The position numbers and the translations under genes are program-made. The notes beneath the pieces are model-generated. The model was not told the origin of the DNA. It saw nothing but the letters and a program-made list of their open reading frames with translations, and searched no databases. A stretch of DNA of 64,000 bases from Terrisporobacter sp. (GTDB lineage: Bacteria; Bacillota_A; Clostridia; Peptostreptococcales; Peptostreptococcaceae), in contig JARKUZ010000050.1 in the NCBI GenBank assembly GCA_029851945.1, positions 5,132-69,131 of the forward strand, read 5' to 3'. This document shows positions 50,230-59,275 of this stretch, one piece after another (the stretch's first letter is position 1; each line of letters starts with the position of its first letter).

Positions 50230-50829
50230 TTATTCCCCAGTATTAATATTATATTTTTTTACTTTTCTATAAAGAGTAGCGATTCCAATATTTAGAGCTT
50301 TAGCTACTTGTTTCATTTCTTGTGTATTACTACCGTATTTCTTTATAGCTTTTTCAATTTCTTCTTTTTCTAATTGCTCAACGGTTTTTATTTCTTCTTT
50401 ATACATTTCATCTAGTTTATATGATATTAAATTTGACATACTGTTTATAAACTCACGTAAGTCTTGATCTTTAGATAAAATTTTATTTTTCTGTTCTTCT
50501 GTAAAAGCAGCTATTCCAAGAATTCCTAAATTATCATCTCCAAGTTTAATCGGAGTACAAATATCAGCAAGTTCTTTGCAATCTTTATTATGTATGCAGT
50601 CCTTGCAGCTGTGTTCAAGTTCACGATTAAATATATATGATTTACTACTACTTAATACATTAGAATAAACTGATTTATCAGAAATTTTTTCACCTATTCT
50701 ACTTTCGAAAATTCCAGTTCCTGATATTCTGACTAAGTCTCTTGATACAACAGTCACATCCACATCAAGAACTGTAGAAATATTTTGACAAACATTTTGT
50801 ATATAATTTGTAATATCAATTAATTTCAA
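50230..50829 (-). CDS. Fis-type HTH regulator with GAF-like domain and four-cysteine cluster
   Basis: A 199-residue regulator. The N-terminal ~150 residues look like the GAF/PAS-type sensory domain of some sigma-54 activators and contain Cys75, Cys78, Cys84 and Cys91 (SCKDCIHNKDCKELADIC), spaced to hold an iron-sulfur cluster or zinc. The last ~45 residues are a Fis-type helix-turn-helix (MKQVAKALNIGIATLYRKVKKY). The AAA+ domain of sigma-54 activators is missing, so it should act as a simple DNA-binding protein. The TTG start follows GGGAGG. It is divergent from cysK-cysE and could be their regulator. Confidence 0.8.
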   Translation of the reverse strand: MKLIDITNYIQNVCQNISTVLDVDVTVVSRDLVRISGTGIFESRIGEKISDKSVYSNVLSSSKSYIFNRELEHSCKDCIHNKDCKELADICTPIKLGDDNLGILGIAAFTEEQKNKILSKDQDLREFINSMSNLISYKLDEMYKEEIKTVEQLEKEEIEKAIKKYGSNTQEMKQVAKALNIGIATLYRKVKKYNINTGE

Positions 50830-50960: not shown

Positions 50961-51009
50961 TTGAATTATCATTTTGATAATGCTATAATATTATTATCAA
51001 AATGATAAT
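50961..51009 (+). promoter_or_regulatory. cysK-cysE promoter with two operator palindromes
   Basis: TTGAAT (50961-50966) and TATAAT (50984-50989) have a 17-base spacer. ATTATCATTTTGATAAT (50965-50981) fills the spacer and ATTATCAAAATGATAAT (50993-51009) covers the likely start site. Both are perfect ATTATCA-N3-TGATAAT dyads whose centres are 28 bp apart. A bound repressor would block RNA polymerase from both sides of the -10. The same arrangement occurs at the cystine symporter gene. Confidence 0.8.
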
Positions 51010-51039
51010 TAGTTAATATATTATATTGGGGTGATTAAA

Positions 51040-51936
51040 ATGAAATATGAAAATGCTTTAGATTTAATAGGTAGTACACCTATGATTTGTTTAAAAAATA
51101 TTGGGTATGAAAATGTTTTTGTTAAACTTGAAAAATATAACCCTGGGGGAAGTATAAAGGATAGAATAGCATTATCTATGATAGAAGGAGCAGAAAAGAA
51201 AAATATCTTAAATAAAGATAGTGTATTAGTTGAAGCGACAAGTGGAAACACAGGTATAGGTCTTGCTATGGTTGGAAAATTAAAGGGATATAAGGTTGTT
51301 ATAATAATGCCTGAAAGCATGAGTATAGAAAGAAGACAATTAGTTAAAGCTTTCGGGGCAGAACTAATTTTAACTAAGGGGTCTAAGGGGATGAATGGTT
51401 CTATAGAAAAGCTAGAAGAGTTATTAAGAAATAATAAAAATTATATAAATTTAGGTCAATTTGAAAATGAAGATAATCCTAGAATTCATTATGAAAAAAC
51501 TGGCCCGGAAATATATGATGAAATACCAGATGTAGATATGATTATAGCTGGAATTGGTTCAGGTGGAACAATAAGTGGTATAGGAAAATTCTTGAAGGAA
51601 AAAAATAACAATGTGAAAGCAATCAGTATAGAACCAAAAGCATCACCACTAATTACTGAAAGTAAAGCGGGACCTCATAAAATTCAAGGAATAGGTGCTA
51701 ATTTTATACCTAAAAACTATAATAAAGAAATAGTAGACGAAGTTTTAACTGTTAGTGATGAAGAAGCTTTTGGAGCTGTTAAATTAATTGCTAATAAACT
51801 TGGAATACTAGTTGGAATATCATCAGGAGCTAATATTTTTGGAGCTATAGAATTATCAAAAAAATATCCAAACAAAAAAATAGTTACCATTGCACCTGAT
51901 GGAATAGATAAATATATGTCCATGGGCATATTTTAG
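51040..51936 (+). CDS. cysK: Cysteine synthase A (O-acetylserine sulfhydrylase)
   Basis: A 298-residue PLP enzyme that makes cysteine from O-acetylserine and sulfide. The PLP lysine is Lys40 in NPGGSIKDRIA, the substrate loop is EATSGNTGIGLA and the phosphate-binding loop is GIGSGGTISGIGK. The ATG at 51040 lies seven bases after GGGGTG; a GTG at 51031 overlaps that site. It heads a two-gene operon with cysE, 14 bases downstream, so acceptor and enzyme are made together. Its promoter has twin palindromic operators. Confidence 0.95.
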   Translation: MKYENALDLIGSTPMICLKNIGYENVFVKLEKYNPGGSIKDRIALSMIEGAEKKNILNKDSVLVEATSGNTGIGLAMVGKLKGYKVVIIMPESMSIERRQLVKAFGAELILTKGSKGMNGSIEKLEELLRNNKNYINLGQFENEDNPRIHYEKTGPEIYDEIPDVDMIIAGIGSGGTISGIGKFLKEKNNNVKAISIEPKASPLITESKAGPHKIQGIGANFIPKNYNKEIVDEVLTVSDEEAFGAVKLIANKLGILVGISSGANIFGAIELSKKYPNKKIVTIAPDGIDKYMSMGIF

Positions 51937-51950
51937 AAAGGTTAAAGAAA

Positions 51951-52517
51951 ATGTTTAAATATATAAATGAAGATTTAAAATATATAATAGATAATGATCC
52001 AGCTGCAAGAAATAAAATAGAAGTATTTTTACTTTATCCATCAATTCATGCGCTTTTAATATATAGAATATCGCATTTTTTTTATAAACATAAAAGGTTT
52101 TTCTTTGCAAGATTATTATCTCAATTTGGAAGATTTATAACTGGTATAGAAATACATCCTGGAGCTAAAATAGGATACGGTATTTTAATAGATCATGGCA
52201 TGGGAGTAGTAATAGGTGAAACAGCTATAATTGGTAATAGGGTAACTATATATCAAGGTGCTACTATAGGAGCTACAGGGAATGAAAAAGAGTTTAAGAG
52301 ACATCCTACTTTAGGTAATGATATTGTAGTAGGCTCTGGAGCTAAAATTTTAGGACCTGTAAGTATTGGAAATCATAGTAAAATAGGAGCTAACTCAGTA
52401 GTTATAAGTGATATGCCGGAATATTCAACAGCAGTTGGTATTCCTGCTAGAATAAAGCAAAGAAAACTTAGTGAAGATGAACTGGAGGAAATAGATAATG
52501 TAGTTTATTTTATATAG
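51951..52517 (+). CDS. cysE: Serine O-acetyltransferase
   Basis: A 188-residue serine acetyltransferase that makes O-acetylserine for CysK. The N-terminal part holds LLYPSIHALLIYRISHFFY, a helical region typical of CysE. The C-terminal ~100 residues form a left-handed beta-helix of hexapeptide repeats (EIHPGAKIGYGILIDHG, then AIIGNRVTIYQGATIGATG and GAKILGPVSIG). It belongs to the short form. It is 14 bases after cysK and ends at a terminator. Feedback inhibition by cysteine is usual in the family. Confidence 0.95.
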   Translation: MFKYINEDLKYIIDNDPAARNKIEVFLLYPSIHALLIYRISHFFYKHKRFFFARLLSQFGRFITGIEIHPGAKIGYGILIDHGMGVVIGETAIIGNRVTIYQGATIGATGNEKEFKRHPTLGNDIVVGSGAKILGPVSIGNHSKIGANSVVISDMPEYSTAVGIPARIKQRKLSEDELEEIDNVVYFI

Positions 52518-52530
52518 TAGTTTAAGGTTT

Positions 52531-52558
52531 AAAAAGAGGGATTTAAATTCCTCTTTTA
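52531..52558 (+). terminator. Terminator after cysE
   Basis: AAAAGAGG pairs with CCTCTTTT, followed by AATT; the stem is perfect though the T tract is short. Confidence 0.78.
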
Positions 52559-52580
52559 ATTATATTAAGCATCAATTTTA

Positions 52581-52830
52581 TTAATAACTCATACATGGTT
52601 CAATATGTATGGTTATACTTTTACCATTTGTAAATTTTTTTAATTAAAACCTATAAATTATTTGCAATTTCATGATCTTCTAGAACACTTAAATTTTTAT
52701 CTATTAAGATAGTTAAATTAACATATGCCATAGAGCTATGTTTTCTAGTTCTGAGTTGGCAGATATTTAATATATTTTTGTTTGCTTCTTCAAATCTATC
52801 TTTCAAAATAAAATCTCTTATATATTTTTA
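52581..52830 (-). pseudogene. Decayed C-terminus of a cation diffusion facilitator (CDF) transporter
   Basis: The minus-strand translation contains FEEANKNILNICQLRTRKHSSMAYVNLTILID, then NLSVLEDHEIAN, a stop, and after a frameshift GKSITIHIEPCMSY. This is the pattern of the cytoplasmic C-terminal domain of CDF metal-cation efflux proteins (LRTRK.G....VDL.I.VD..L.....H.IA, ending ...I.IHIEP). Only about 80 codons persist, without the membrane part. Clearly a remnant; its metal was unknown. Confidence 0.8.
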
Positions 52831-53024
52831 CTACCAATTGATAATTACATGATAAGGGTTAAGGCTGTTAATATTAGCTAATTATTCTCGGTTGTTGTTA
52901 TCAAATGAGAGTTAAATTTGTTATAGAACGTATAAGTATTTAAAGTATTTAAATTGGTTGTTTATTCTACTAATATGTGATAAACTTCTTTACACAAGAT
53001 AACTTATCTTAAGGGAGATTAATA

Positions 53025-53435
53025 ATGAAGGAAAAAATAATGAAATTTATGTATGGAAGATACGGTAATGATGAACTAAATCAATTTTTAGTGAAGTTAA
53101 TATTTGTAAATTTAATATTATCTTTATTTGTAAGAAGTTCAAGATTTTTAAGCGATTTATTTTATTATTTAAGTATAATTTTATTAATTTTTATGTATTA
53201 TCGTATGTTTTCTAAAAATTATAGCAAAAGATATTCAGAAAAAATGGCTTACCTAGAATATTCTAATAAGGTAAAAGTATATCTAGATAAAAATAATAAA
53301 GATAAATCACAAAGAAAAGAATTTCGTTTTTATAAATGTCCATCATGTAAGCAAAAGGTAAGAGTACCTAGAGGTAAGGGGAAAATATCTATCCATTGTC
53401 CTAAATGTGGTGTAGATTTTATTAAGAAAAGTTAA
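53025..53435 (+). CDS. Small membrane protein with C-terminal zinc ribbon
   Basis: A 136-residue protein with two hydrophobic segments (about 20-40 and 44-62), a basic linker and a zinc ribbon at the C-terminus (KCPSCKQKVRVPRGKGKI, then HCPKCG). Such TM-plus-zinc-ribbon proteins are widespread in Firmicutes with no known job. AAGGGAGA precedes the ATG. It lies between the cysE block and the cystine symporter and has its own terminator-like hairpin; a link to sulfur is not shown. Confidence 0.75.
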   Translation: MKEKIMKFMYGRYGNDELNQFLVKLIFVNLILSLFVRSSRFLSDLFYYLSIILLIFMYYRMFSKNYSKRYSEKMAYLEYSNKVKVYLDKNNKDKSQRKEFRFYKCPSCKQKVRVPRGKGKISIHCPKCGVDFIKKS

Positions 53436-53449
53436 AAATATTATTTAAG

Positions 53450-53490
53450 ACTCATTTATTCATAGTTTTTATGATTGAATGAGTTTTTTT
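53450..53490 (+). terminator. Terminator after zinc-ribbon gene
   Basis: ACTCATT with AATGAGT, additional internal pairing (CATAG region), and TTTTTTT after it. Confidence 0.7.
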
Positions 53491-53502
53491 ATGAAAAAAT
53501 TC

Positions 53503-53551
53503 TTGTATTATCAAAATGATAATGCTATAATTCTATTATCATTTTGATAAC
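53503..53551 (+). promoter_or_regulatory. Cystine symporter promoter with two operator palindromes
   Basis: TTGTAT (53503-53508) and TATAAT (53526-53531) are 17 bases apart. ATTATCAAAATGATAAT (53507-53523) fills the spacer and ATTATCATTTTGATAAC (53535-53551, one mismatch at the end) lies just past the -10. Spacing and position match the cysK promoter exactly, with the two centre sequences swapped, so one regulator probably controls both. Confidence 0.8.
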
Positions 53552-53600: not shown

Positions 53601-54971
53601 ATGAGTAATACATTTTTTTCACAATTTTTAATGATAACAAATATACATACTATAATTATGATTGCTTTATTAGTAGGATTATTTGTATTAGTAAATAAAT
53701 TAAAAGGAAAAGTAAAATTTACAAATTTGATGATTATATCAATATTTTTAGGTTTAGGGCTTGGAATAATAATTCAACTTATAGCTAAATTTCCAAGTGA
53801 TCCGTCGGAGATTTCATGGATAAAAGAAATTAGTTCTTGGTATGGTCTACTTGGAAATGGATTTATGGATTTATTAAAAATGATAGTGATGCCACTGGTA
53901 TTAGTATCAATAATAAGAGTTATAATGAATATGAAAGAAGATAACTTAGGAAAGTTAACTTTTAAATCTATGGGGATGTTTTTCTTAACTACTGCTTTAG
54001 CAGCTACTATAGCAATAATAATTGGGACTATGTTTAACCTAGGATCAAATGTAGAAGCTGTAAATTCTAGCGAACAGATTAGAGAGATAACATCTCTACC
54101 GGATACTATAAGAGGATTATTACCATCTAATCCAATAAAAGCTATGGCTGATGGAAATACAGTGGCAGTTGTAATATTTGCCACGTTTATAGGATTAGCA
54201 ATTAAAAGACTTAAAAAGAAATATTTAGAGATAGTAAAACCATTTATAGATTTAGTTGAAGCTTTTTATAAAATAATAGTTTCAGTTGCAATAACAGTAA
54301 TTAAGATGATGCCTTATGCTATAATTCCACTTATGGCAAGCACTATTGCAAGTAGAGGGATTAAATCATTATTAGATGTTGTTGATTTTATACTAGCTTT
54401 ATACTTGAGTGTTGCTGTTATGTTTATTATACATTTAATAATAGTTGCTTTGAGTGGAGTAAATCCTATAACTTATCTTAAGAATGTATCAAGAGCATTA
54501 ATACTTGCATTTACATCTCGTTCTAGTTTAGGTACTTTACCTGTTACCGTAGAATGTTTAACGGATAAAATGAATGTAGATTCTGGGACAGCAAGCTTTG
54601 TTACTAGTTTAGGTTCTAATATGGGGATGAATGGATGTGCTGGAATATATCCAGCATTAGTAAGTGTTATGCTTGCAAATATGGCAAATATAGATATGAA
54701 TTTTACATTTTATTCTATGTTAATAATTGTAATAACAATAAGCTCTCTAGGTATAGCGGGCATACCAGGAACTGCAACTATGGCAGTATCTGTTGTTATA
54801 TCAGGTATTGGACTTGGTGAATATTTCCCTTTAGTTGGAGCTGTAATAGCTATAGATCCTATCCTAGACATGGCTCGTACAATGTTGAACGTAAATGGAA
54901 CCATGGCTATTTCTATAGTTGTAGATAAATCTTTAAAAAATGATAAATTAGAAGTAGAAAAAATATCATAA
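53601..54971 (+). CDS. Dicarboxylate/amino acid:cation symporter, probable L-cystine importer (TcyP-like)
   Basis: A 456-residue DAACS (SDF) family symporter with about eight helices and two re-entrant hairpins. FTSRSSLGTLPVTVECL is the serine-rich hairpin, GMNGCAGIYPALVSVMLAN the NMDGT-like segment, and GIAGIPGTATMAVSVV the second hairpin. The family carries glutamate, dicarboxylates or cystine. The length and the promoter shared with cysK-cysE favour cystine, as for TcyP, but that is inference. AAGGAGG precedes the ATG. Monocistronic. Confidence 0.88.
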   Translation: MSNTFFSQFLMITNIHTIIMIALLVGLFVLVNKLKGKVKFTNLMIISIFLGLGLGIIIQLIAKFPSDPSEISWIKEISSWYGLLGNGFMDLLKMIVMPLVLVSIIRVIMNMKEDNLGKLTFKSMGMFFLTTALAATIAIIIGTMFNLGSNVEAVNSSEQIREITSLPDTIRGLLPSNPIKAMADGNTVAVVIFATFIGLAIKRLKKKYLEIVKPFIDLVEAFYKIIVSVAITVIKMMPYAIIPLMASTIASRGIKSLLDVVDFILALYLSVAVMFIIHLIIVALSGVNPITYLKNVSRALILAFTSRSSLGTLPVTVECLTDKMNVDSGTASFVTSLGSNMGMNGCAGIYPALVSVMLANMANIDMNFTFYSMLIIVITISSLGIAGIPGTATMAVSVVISGIGLGEYFPLVGAVIAIDPILDMARTMLNVNGTMAISIVVDKSLKNDKLEVEKIS

Positions 54972-57251: not shown

Positions 57252-59045
57252 TTACTGTGGAATCTCTCCGTATATATCAATTAATTCCTGTTCAAATCCT
57301 ACTGGATTGTTTATTGATTCATACATTGCTCTTGTTAATATATTTGCTTGGTCGTAAGTTGATGTCCAGGAGAATATACCTCCTAAGCAGTTATCGAGAG
57401 CATATTGAGCCTTTAAGAATATAGATAAATCATTATCAAAAGACATAGCGAATTGACCGCCTTGAACTAAATAAGGAACCTTAGCTGCATTATCAAATCT
57501 ATATTCATAACCATTTTTATTTATAAAAGATTTTCTAAGTTCATCATAAGATTTTGTTACTGTTGCGCCAAGTCTGCCGTAGAAAGGAACACCTAAAAGA
57601 ATTTTTTGTGAAGGCATTCCAGCATTTATTAAGTTATTAACGAATCTGTCTACACTATATCCAGGTAATGATAAATCTGAATCATATAAATTGGCCTGAT
57701 GTTTTCTTCCTCTTTCTCCAGTCTCTCCTGCAGTAAAATCATAGCTCATTAAATTAAAGTGTGTCAAAAGTGGAGCTACATTTGCTACTTCTAAACTATT
57801 ATTAATATAAGCACTATCTCCTGTACCTGCCACACTAATCCAAGTATCTGGTCCTAATACATCTCTTAATGCTGTAATTAAAAGAGTAAAGTTTTCTTTA
57901 TCTTGTGGTCTTGATTTTATTCCAGCAGCACTACTTCCTGGATATTCCCAGTCTAAATCTATACCATCTAAGCCATAATCATTGATAAGATCCTGCGCAT
58001 TTCGGGCAAAATTATATCTTGAAGATGGTGTAAGAGCTGCATCTGAAAATCCATCAGCTCCCCATCCGCCTATAGCGGCTATTACTTGTAGTGATGGTTT
58101 AACATCTCTTAAATTTAATAATTGATTTAAATAACCTGGTGATGGAACTCTTAAATCACCATTAGAATCAATTTCTACAAAGGCATAAATAACTGCATCT
58201 AAAAAACTTGGATCTACATTAGCAGGATTTCCAAGTACATATTCTGCTACTATAGGTTTTAAATTTGGACAATTAGGATTTTGAGTATCTGGTGGCAACT
58301 CTTTATCTACAGGAGGTCTGTTTAAATTTTTAGTTTTTGTAGACATTATATTGTTAGAACTAAGAGCCTTTTTAGTGTTATTCATTCTTTCTATACATTT
58401 TTTACTCTCATCTTCTACAAAACATAAGTACCAATCCATACAAGAGTATTTTTTATCACAATTTTTAACTCTTTTTAGTAACTCTTTGTGAGTTTTTGGT
58501 GGTGGTAAAATAACTGGCATTCCAGGCATCCAGTTTGCAGGTGTAACCACGTTATTCCTATCTACAGTTTGTAAAGAATCAATGATTCTAAGTATCTCAG
58601 GAATATTTCTTCCTGTAGAAAGTGGGTAGTATAATATGGTTCTCAATACTTGTTTATCGTCTATAATGAATACACTTCTTATTGTAGATGTACTACTCAT
58701 AGGCTCCGAAATCATTCCATACTTTTTTGCTATCTTCATATCTCTATCTTCAATAACTGGAAATGGTATTTCTATTCCAGTAAGCTGTAAAATATTATAT
58801 ATCCATGCCAAATGAGAAGTATTACTATCAACACTAAGTCCGATTAGTTGAGTATTTCTTTTTTCGAATTCACAAGCATATTTAGCAAAACACATAAATT
58901 CAGTGGTGCATACAGGTGTAAAATCACCAGGGTGCGAAAAAAGAACAACCCATTTACCCACATAATCGGATAATTCTATCGTGCCAAATGTACTATTGGC
59001 TCTAAAATTAGGGGTCTTTTCTCCTAAGTTAGGAAGACATGCCAT
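57252..59045 (-). CDS. cotE: Peroxiredoxin-chitinase fusion, CotE-like spore coat protein
   Basis: A 597-residue fusion protein. Residues about 1-165 form a 1-Cys-type peroxiredoxin with PGDFTPVCTTEF (Cys46). A linker with several cysteines (NCDKKYSCMDWYLC) joins a GH18 chitinase domain (about 265-597) with DGIDLDWEYP (360-369), where Glu367 is the catalytic acid. This is the layout of C. difficile CotE, a spore-coat protein with peroxiredoxin and chitinase activity. The ATG at 59045 is used because GAGGTGA lies upstream; a GTG nine bases further up overlaps that site. The product marks the organism as a spore former. Confidence 0.93.
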   Translation of the reverse strand: MACLPNLGEKTPNFRANSTFGTIELSDYVGKWVVLFSHPGDFTPVCTTEFMCFAKYACEFEKRNTQLIGLSVDSNTSHLAWIYNILQLTGIEIPFPVIEDRDMKIAKKYGMISEPMSSTSTIRSVFIIDDKQVLRTILYYPLSTGRNIPEILRIIDSLQTVDRNNVVTPANWMPGMPVILPPPKTHKELLKRVKNCDKKYSCMDWYLCFVEDESKKCIERMNNTKKALSSNNIMSTKTKNLNRPPVDKELPPDTQNPNCPNLKPIVAEYVLGNPANVDPSFLDAVIYAFVEIDSNGDLRVPSPGYLNQLLNLRDVKPSLQVIAAIGGWGADGFSDAALTPSSRYNFARNAQDLINDYGLDGIDLDWEYPGSSAAGIKSRPQDKENFTLLITALRDVLGPDTWISVAGTGDSAYINNSLEVANVAPLLTHFNLMSYDFTAGETGERGRKHQANLYDSDLSLPGYSVDRFVNNLINAGMPSQKILLGVPFYGRLGATVTKSYDELRKSFINKNGYEYRFDNAAKVPYLVQGGQFAMSFDNDLSIFLKAQYALDNCLGGIFSWTSTYDQANILTRAMYESINNPVGFEQELIDIYGEIPQ

Positions 59046-59275
59046 AAAAATCACCTCATTAAAATAATTATATATTAATTTATTTTATTAAATTTAGGCA
59101 TATAATGTTACAATTAAGTATTTATAATACTTTGCAATAATTTTGTCATAAGAAAAAGCACAAATATAACTATTTTTTCTACAATTAATTATTATTATTA
59201 ATTGCCAATTTTGTATAAGTTTGTTATCATATTAGATATAGTGCAATAATATATATAAAAGTTGAGGTGAGGGGC

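What the first reader, a model, noticed from the sequence alone, without database searches (positions are those of the whole stretch)
50961..53551. Twin-palindrome operators with identical geometry at two sulfur genes
The cysK-cysE promoter and the cystine-symporter promoter, 2.5 kb apart, each have a 17-bp ATTATCA-N3-TGATAAT palindrome filling the -35/-10 spacer and a second just past the -10. Centres are 28 bp apart in both. Four copies (three perfect, one with a single end mismatch) in two places are far beyond chance. The geometry suggests a repressor that clamps RNA polymerase from both sides. I did not recognise this site as that of a known cysteine regulator such as CymR, so it may define an undescribed cysteine/cystine regulon.
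Basis: partly seen in the sequence, partly recalled or inferred. Interest (0 to 1): 0.78.

Follow-up and report, generated by a model that had tools for sequence, protein, structure and literature searches.

The report
Paired repressor sites at cysteine genes
Two cysteine-related promoters carry matching pairs of DNA palindromes, very probably the docking sites of a small neighbouring regulator, with a close relative in C. difficile, that looks like a gene activator that lost its motor and became a repressor of cysteine making and uptake.

Summary
Four ATTATCA-N3-TGATAAT sites lie at the cysK-cysE and transporter promoters, one filling each 17-bp spacer and one over the likely start site; shuffles give 0.17 such sites per window. 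Such pairs recur in Peptostreptococcaceae, C. difficile included, at cysK or at varying amino-acid transporters. The 28-bp spacing is not conserved.

Best candidate binder: the divergent 'Fis-type' gene 50230-50829(-), here REG, a GAF-like sensor plus HTH_8 without AAA+ domain. Over 60 genomes a good site precedes cysK in 35 of 36 with REG and 0 of 24 without; only 5 independent contrasts exist (4 agree, 0 oppose, 1 neutral; p 0.125). REG's recognition helix IGIATLYRK resembles that of 8 of 9 sigma54 activators found beside the same motif, and REG shares four sensor cysteines with CdsR, activator of cysteine breakdown. Rrf2 (CymR-type) proteins do not track the sites.

The motif's spelling is in none of the held papers. 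Binding, repression and ligand are inferred; of the published C. difficile expression data seen, most fit a cysteine-responsive repressor and one statement contradicts it.

The parts
50961..50966 (+). -35 hexamer TTGAAT of the cysK-cysE promoter
   Evidence: sequence; 17-bp spacer
50965..50981 (+). operator O1 of cysK-cysE, palindrome ATTATCATTTTGATAAT filling the spacer
50984..50989 (+). -10 hexamer TATAAT of the cysK-cysE promoter
50993..51009 (+). operator O2 of cysK-cysE, palindrome ATTATCAAAATGATAAT over the predicted transcription start (start site inferred)
51040..51936 (+). cysK, cysteine synthase A (ATG 51040 after GGGGTG; the ORF list starts it at GTG 51031)
   Evidence: TIGR01139 above cut-off; start
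51951..52517 (+). cysE / EpsC-type serine O-acetyltransferase
   Evidence: TIGR01172 and NF041874 above cut-off
53503..53508 (+). -35 hexamer TTGTAT of the transporter promoter
53507..53523 (+). operator O1 of the transporter gene, ATTATCAAAATGATAAT filling the spacer
53526..53531 (+). -10 hexamer TATAAT of the transporter promoter
53535..53551 (+). operator O2 of the transporter gene, ATTATCATTTTGATAAC (one mismatch)
53601..54971 (+). SDF-family symporter (PF00375), probable cyst(e)ine carrier
   Evidence: no NCBIfam equivalog passes
50230..50829 (-). REG, candidate repressor, 199 aa: GAF-like sensor with four conserved Cys plus HTH_8, no AAA+ domain. TTG start at 50829 chosen because it follows GGGAGG; the ORF list starts at ATG 50847 (205 aa)

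Best explanation
The palindromes are operators of REG (50230-50829, minus strand), a one-component regulator made of a GAF-like sensor with four conserved cysteines and a Fis-type HTH_8 domain. It is an AAA+-less relative of the sigma54 activator CdsR. A REG dimer sits on each palindrome; the one in the -35/-10 spacer and the one over the start site shut out sigmaA RNA polymerase (position shown; dimer, occupancy and repression inferred). REG keeps cysK-cysE and a main cyst(e)ine-type transporter off when the cell's cysteine or cysteine-derived sulfur pool is high and lets go when it falls (inferred). The regulon is small: at the promoter pattern tested, these two promoters in the nearest relative held (G070), cysK only in two named C. 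difficile genomes. Confidence: about 0.85 that REG is the binder, about 0.6 for repression in response to cysteine.
For: Co-occurrence: best site of at least 12 of 14 before cysK in 35 of 36 REG+ and 0 of 24 REG- genomes (60 of the 62 genomes with a cysK hit were fetched); before SDF genes in 22 of 38 genes of REG+ genomes and 0 of 22 of REG- genomes. The one REG+ exception at cysK, G004, has its pair at SDF. Spacer-promoter pattern at up to 2 mismatches in 35 of 40 REG+ and 1 of 31 REG- genomes (that one lacks TTATCA). Adjacency: REG is divergent from cysK across the operators in the window and in 6 genomes, and directly before SDF in G004. Recognition helix: IGIATLYRK in 118 of 120 listed REG homologues. 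The 70 loci of the motif scan hold 9 sigma54 activators, found without any filter on the helix; 8 have GIG[IV]ATLYR, 1 GISIATLYR. The 8 different CdsR-type proteins have GISRATLYRK. Of 13 HTH_8 matches in G005 and G015, only the 2 REGs have IGIATLYRK. Function: where SDF is not the target, pairs precede amino-acid ABC transporters (Asaccharospora L007, a Clostridioides bin L053, Tepidibacter L120); the Tepidibacter binding protein is best matched by the cystine model, 227 bits, below its cut-off of 312. Sensor: pattern C-x2-C-x5-C-x6-C-x-P in 115 of 120 REG homologues and the four Cys also in CdsR; CdsR is needed for cysteine-induced expression of the cysteine-degrading cdsB (PMC5767170, passages). 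C. difficile cysKE expression (passages): up to 32-fold up in the transition phase (PMC6110889); cysK 12.4-fold down with ebselen, in a section titled as raising the cysteine pool (PMC8557875); cysK and cysE 68.68- and 57.33-fold down in a rpoN mutant (PMC12069270); glucose effect independent of CcpA (PMC3510511).
Against: No binding or expression experiment on REG. Phylogenetic independence is limited: on a CysK tree only 5 supported contrasts, 4 agree, 0 oppose, 1 does not differ, sign test p 0.125. PMC6459899 states, citing two papers, that cysK and cysE were among the most up-regulated genes on L-cysteine treatment (passage); the cited Dubois 2016 paper is not held and I did not see this in the passages of the other. 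The SDF genes of C. difficile G001 and G002 have no site. 8 of the 35 cysK promoters with a site do not have it in the spacer register, among them G012 and G071, close kin of the window; in G013, G014, G064 and G066 the site is also weaker (12 or 13 of 14). REG's own promoter has no site except where it shares the cysK intergenic region (6 of 30 loci looked at, of 40 with REG). Genome-wide, single sites with at most 1 mismatch are at control level, 14 against 13 in G070 and 12 against 15 in G015.
Confidence: 0.72

Rival explanations
1. REG binds the sites but its signal is sulfide or persulfide (or O-acetylserine), not cysteine: the four Cys react with or ligate a sulfur species or metal, and the repressor lets go when sulfide is plentiful, so that CysK can capture it.
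For: Four Cys (C-x2-C-x5-C-x6-C) conserved in REG and CdsR. The reported up-regulation of cysKE by L-cysteine (passage of PMC6459899) and the 57- to 69-fold fall in a rpoN mutant (PMC12069270), which should lack CdsB and its H2S (inferred), both fit a sulfide inducer.
Against: cysKE rise up to 32-fold in the transition phase, which the paper links to depleted cysteine (PMC6110889). The Cys loop (81-90) has pLDDT under 50 in the model, so no metal site can be read. Co-regulating a cystine importer makes less sense for a sulfide-induced system.
Confidence: 0.2
2. Another regulator, for example an Rrf2-type CymR/IscR protein or an unlinked factor that shares REG's history, binds the palindromes.
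For: Co-occurrence cannot exclude a co-inherited factor; Rrf2 proteins are present in 69 of 71 of these genomes.
Against: Rrf2 is equally present in REG- genomes that lack sites. REG lies beside the operators in two arrangements, and its recognition helix matches 8 of 9 activators in loci with the same motif. Other regulator families were not searched.
Confidence: 0.12
3. REG activates rather than represses, or the palindromes act as RNA or DNA hairpins at the start of the transcript.
For: The HTH domain is of the family used by sigma54 activators. The palindromes are self-complementary.
Against: REG has no AAA+ domain, needed for sigma54 activation. The sites lie between -35 and -10 and over the start, where a bound protein would block the polymerase. 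In the window the transcript would start inside the second palindrome, so the RNA hairpin would be incomplete (inferred).
Confidence: 0.06

Closest known systems
CdsR (C. difficile CD630_32330), sigma54-dependent activator of cdsB
   Same: Homologous sensor domain (38% identity over REG residues 12-169) with the same four Cys, homologous HTH_8, and a cysteine-linked target (PMC5767170, passages). That the protein is CdsR follows from its 591 aa, domains and neighbouring cdsB-like gene.
   Different: CdsR has the AAA+ sigma54-interaction domain; REG is about 200 aa without it. CdsR's recognition helix is GISRATLYRK, REG's NIGIATLYRK. CdsR turns on breakdown from a distance; REG's sites lie inside -35/-10 promoters.
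Sigma54 activators of the dpaL/M20-peptidase kind (perhaps DioR of PMC6615313)
   Same: TTATCA-N3-TGATAA pairs in the same loci as these activators, homologous sensor, similar helix.
   Different: Full-length AAA+ proteins; spacing 20-22 bp in 6 of 9 loci, 33 in 3. That some are DioR is my inference from gene lists in passages; the paper's motif figure and tables were not available.
CodY
   Same: GAF sensor followed by a helix-turn-helix, amino-acid responsive repressor (as recalled); the top Foldseek matches of the REG model are CodY chains (E 5.9e-06, TM 0.45).
   Different: HTH_8 rather than CodY's winged helix, another operator, a regulon of a few genes.
CymR (Rrf2 family), cysteine regulator of Bacillus and Staphylococcus
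   Same: Controls cysteine metabolism (start of the abstract of PMC2869319 seen; details recalled).
   Different: Unrelated protein family and, as recalled, a different box.

Membership tests
Sigma54 enhancer-binding proteins (NtrC family) | AAA+ sigma54-interaction domain with GAFTGA loop | tested here: not met
   REG has only HTH_8 above cut-off, no PF00158; 205-aa ORF
Sigma54 enhancer-binding proteins (NtrC family) | C-terminal Fis-type HTH (HTH_8) | tested here: met
   PF02954, 31.4 bits, cut-off 22
Sigma54 enhancer-binding proteins (NtrC family) | Targets with -24/-12 promoters and distant upstream sites | tested here: not met
   sites lie in -35/-10 promoters in the window and in spacer register in 27 of 35 cysK promoters with a site
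CodY | GAF sensor domain | tested here: inconclusive
   AF2 model pLDDT 79; CodY and other GAF chains among the top Foldseek hits, with low TM-scores, mostly 0.3-0.5 by query length; no Pfam GAF hit
CodY | CodY winged-helix DNA-binding domain | tested here: not met
   HTH_8 instead
CymR / Rrf2 | Rrf2 domain (PF02082) | tested here: not met
   no Rrf2 hit in REG
CymR / Rrf2 | Operator of the CymR type | not tested
   CymR consensus only recalled
Cysteine-responsive repressor (function class) | Binds and represses cysteine synthesis and uptake genes | not testable with these tools
   needs gel shift and deletion mutant
Cysteine-responsive repressor (function class) | Sites restricted to sulfur genes in genomes with the regulator | tested here: inconclusive
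   the paired sites identified in this family lie at cysK or transporters, but single sites are at chance level genome-wide and some sit at M20/AbgT genes

The most novel reading that the evidence does not exclude
One ancestral cysteine-family sigma54 activator gave rise in Peptostreptococcaceae to two opposed regulators with the same four-cysteine sensor: CdsR, which kept its AAA+ motor and switches on cysteine breakdown, and REG, which lost the motor, changed its recognition helix and operator, and became a sigmaA repressor of cysteine synthesis and uptake, so that one sulfur signal is read in two directions, in C. difficile too.
Probability: 0.35. Interest if true: 0.72.

Novelty: new variant of a known kind. 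Interest (0 to 1): 0.58.

Why it matters
Cysteine controls metabolism and toxin output in C. difficile, and in the passages I read no direct repressor of cysK-cysE is named although the operon changes 12- to 69-fold. This names a candidate protein and its exact sites. It is also a candidate case of a sigma54 activator losing its motor domain and turning into a classical repressor, with an activator relative still in the same genomes.

Tried and rejected
28-bp spacing as a signature: rejected. Genome-wide regulon by single sites: no signal above the reversed-pattern control at 1 mismatch (14 v 13, 12 v 15); at TTATCANNNTGATAA in 12 genomes 3 to 8 per genome against 0 to 10. CymR/Rrf2: rejected as an explanation of presence and absence. 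Autoregulation: in 30 of 40 REG loci no site before REG outside the shared cysK region. CdsR upstream site: the best candidate in the cdsR-cdsB gap, AATCTCA-N3-TGAGATT, lies about where PMC5767170 puts the activating region, but it is also the stem of a terminator-like repeat before a run of T, so I do not build on it. Rfam (gathering thresholds) and tRNA scans of the window found nothing. PDB sequence search with REG gave 6 weak matches, 4 of them NtrC-family HTH regions. A search for C. difficile locus tags near REG's recalled position gave 8 papers, one on C. difficile; its one passage names CD1436 as a VanW protein and says nothing of the next gene. Two literature searches for a GAF or Fis-family cysteine regulator: one returned 0 papers, the other 16, of which the 10 listed were not relevant by title and start of abstract. 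Of the 70 loci I assigned 25 to cysK or a transporter, 9 to sigma54 activators and 4 to NAD-type genes; the other 32 were not assigned. My first helix table filtered on the helix; one search repeats it without that filter and finds the same 9 activators.
Full report
OBSERVATION. They are the only sites with at most one mismatch in the window; shuffles give 0.17 on average and none of 100 reaches four. Each promoter has a -35 of the form TTGNAT, a 17-bp spacer and TATAAT; the first palindrome overlaps the -35 end and fills the spacer, the second begins 4 bp after the -10 and so covers the likely start site (start site inferred). Promoter A drives cysK and cysE (NCBIfam equivalogs above cut-off); promoter B drives an SDF-family symporter (PF00375).

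WHERE ELSE. A scan of one genome per species for two TTATCA-N3-TGATAA sites separated by 5 to 30 bp returned 70 loci. By my reading pairs lie at cysK, 11 at the SDF gene, 3 at an amino-acid ABC transporter, 9 are in loci that carry a sigma54 activator, and 4 lie before isochorismatase-type genes (one of these loci, L004, checked by Pfam and also holding a nicotinate phosphoribosyltransferase); 32 were not assigned. The 25 at cysK or a transporter come, by record titles, from Terrisporobacter, Romboutsia, Clostridioides including C. difficile, Asaccharospora, Tepidibacter, and bins titled Peptostreptococcaceae or Clostridium sp. Centre spacing in these 25 is 26, 28, 29, 34 or 37; in the later set also 31, 35 and 36, with one pair at 20. 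T. mayombei has three cysK sites at 28 + 28 bp, and G023 has four within 76 bp between the outer centres.

THE CANDIDATE BINDER. The divergent gene before cysK (50230-50829, minus; called REG here) encodes about 200 aa with HTH_8 at the C-terminus (31.4 bits, cut-off 22) and no AAA+ domain. TTG 50829 is the likelier start, 7 bp after GGGAGG; the closest database homologues are mostly 199 aa, the named ones chiefly from Terrisporobacter. An AlphaFold2 model (mean pLDDT 79) has a GAF-like sensor; its best Foldseek matches are CodY chains, with low TM-scores. Of 71 genomes of the family, 40 have REG at E up to 1e-35. In 297 genomes drawn from the order, the matches at E up to 1e-30 other than these 40 are open frames of 587-615 aa, the size of full activators; weaker short relatives would not show at that threshold.

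CO-OCCURRENCE. I took about 450 bp upstream of cysK in 60 of the 62 genomes with a cysK hit (G009 and G067, both REG+, were not fetched; G035, REG-, gave only 198 bp and G058, REG-, 440). The best match to the palindrome is at least 12 of 14 in 35 of 36 REG+ genomes and 0 of 24 REG- genomes; before SDF genes (60 of 60 fetched, one shortened to 252 bp) in 22 of 38 against 0 of 22. The REG+ exception at cysK, G004, has the pair at SDF with REG directly before it. The promoter pattern with a spacer palindrome, at up to 2 mismatches, is in 35 of 40 REG+ and 1 of 31 REG- genomes, the one (G042) without TTATCA. These genomes are related: on a CysK tree REG changes 6 times and the site 5 times; of 5 supported independent pairs 4 agree, none opposes, 1 does not differ, p 0.125. 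So the association is strong in numbers and consistent over the few independent events, but not significant on those alone. Rrf2 proteins are in 69 of 71 genomes.

MATCH OF HELIX AND SITE. REG's recognition helix reads IGIATLYRK in 118 of 120 listed homologues; the two others are cut or shifted before it ends. The 70 scan loci hold nine sigma54 activators by a search without helix filter: 8 have GIG[IV]ATLYR, 1 GISIATLYR. The 8 different CdsR-type proteins have GISRATLYRK. Among 13 HTH_8 matches in T. mayombei (G005) and an unnamed Clostridioides-like genome (G015), only the two REGs have IGIATLYRK. The nine activators were selected by the motif, so this is correlation, not proof.

LINK TO CYSTEINE. 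REG's sensor is 38% identical to that of a 592-codon C. difficile open frame, which lies beside a cdsB-like gene and so is CdsR by inference; PMC5767170 (passages) shows that CdsR and sigma54 are needed for cysteine-induced cdsB. REG and CdsR share C-x2-C-x5-C-x6-C. In REG homologues the pattern followed by x-P is in 115 of 120; two of the other five keep all four Cys. Targets change gene but keep function: SDF in Terrisporobacter and Romboutsia, an ABC importer in Asaccharospora and a Clostridioides bin, another ABC importer in Tepidibacter whose binding protein scores best against the cystine model, 227 bits, below its cut-off of 312. The substrate of these importers is inferred; the Asaccharospora and Clostridioides binding proteins score best against a lysine/arginine/ornithine model, also below cut-off. 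Single sites lie before an M20 peptidase and AbgT transporter in two Terrisporobacter, and two sites precede an oligopeptide-type binding protein in one.

EXPRESSION IN PRINT (passages only, C. difficile): cysKE up to 32-fold up in the transition phase (PMC6110889); cysK down 12.4-fold with ebselen, while a cystine/cysteine ABC transporter subunit rose 3.97-fold (PMC8557875); cysK and cysE down 68.68- and 57.33-fold in a rpoN mutant (PMC12069270); up with glucose independently of CcpA (PMC3510511). Against: PMC6459899 says, citing two papers, that cysK and cysE were among the most up-regulated on L-cysteine. The first cited paper is not held; the passages of the second that I saw do not say so. 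The direction of the cysteine effect is therefore open, and a sulfide-responsive REG is kept as the main rival.

MECHANISM. Most likely REG dimers occupy each palindrome and block sigmaA polymerase at the spacer and the start site when the cysteine-derived signal is high. Shown: sites, promoter register, co-occurrence, adjacency, helix match. Inferred: binding, repression, ligand. Evidence against: limited independence; no site at SDF in C. difficile G001 and G002; 8 of 35 cysK promoters with the site out of spacer register, two of them close kin of the window; chance-level single sites genome-wide.

NOVELTY. A full-text search for five spellings of the motif found 0 papers; searches for a GAF or Fis-family cysteine regulator found none relevant in the listings. 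PMC6615313 (passages) reconstructs sigma54 regulons in Clostridiales and includes CdsR, working from AAA+ activators; its tables and figures were not available, so the motif of a sister activator may be in print there. I rate this a new variant of a known kind: HTH_8 domain, GAF-like sensor and twin operators are each known; an AAA+-less relative of a cysteine activator acting on -35/-10 promoters appears new as far as these searches go.

Noticed in passing
L004, L014, L055, L057 (Lachnospiraceae and a Roseburia bin): The same palindrome fills the spacer of TTGACATATTATCA-N3-TGATAATATTATA promoters (exact in L004, L014, L057), with a second copy 34-40 bp on, before isochorismatase-type genes (Pfam checked in L004 only); L004 also holds a nicotinate phosphoribosyltransferase. 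No REG hit; a different, possibly undescribed regulator of NAD genes.
   Followed up: partly
L001, L006, L018, L032, L033, L046, L048, L050, L059: Pairs or triples of TTATCA-N3-TGATAA in the same loci as GAFTGA-type sigma54 activators, most with sensors resembling REG; spacing 20-22 bp in six, 33 in L032, L048 and L059.
   Followed up: partly
L255, L256, L253 (cysK upstream of G013, G014, G064): Besides the weaker palindrome upstream of -35 these cysK leaders share a TTCTGATA-N2-AATACTA element downstream of the -10, perhaps the site of another regulator.
   Followed up: no
L079 1935-1949 (Tepidibacter mesophilus): A perfect TTATCAAAATGATAA lies inside the REG coding sequence itself.
   Followed up: no
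L127 4675-4689 (C. difficile): A single TTATCATATTGATAA sits after what looks like the -10 of a glyA-like gene (my reading of the protein start).
   Followed up: no
window 57252-59054; L121: Peroxiredoxin-chitinase-like fusion resembling the C. difficile spore-coat protein CotE (resemblance recalled). In C. difficile the REG orthologue lies in a similar neighbourhood (L121) right after a VanW-like gene, away from cysK; PMC11986978 names CD1436 as VanW, so REG is probably CD1437.
   Followed up: partly
window 53025-53435: Small membrane protein with a zinc-ribbon-like end (Pfam hit below cut-off) between cysE and the SDF gene, conserved before SDF in L008, L041 and L051.
   Followed up: no
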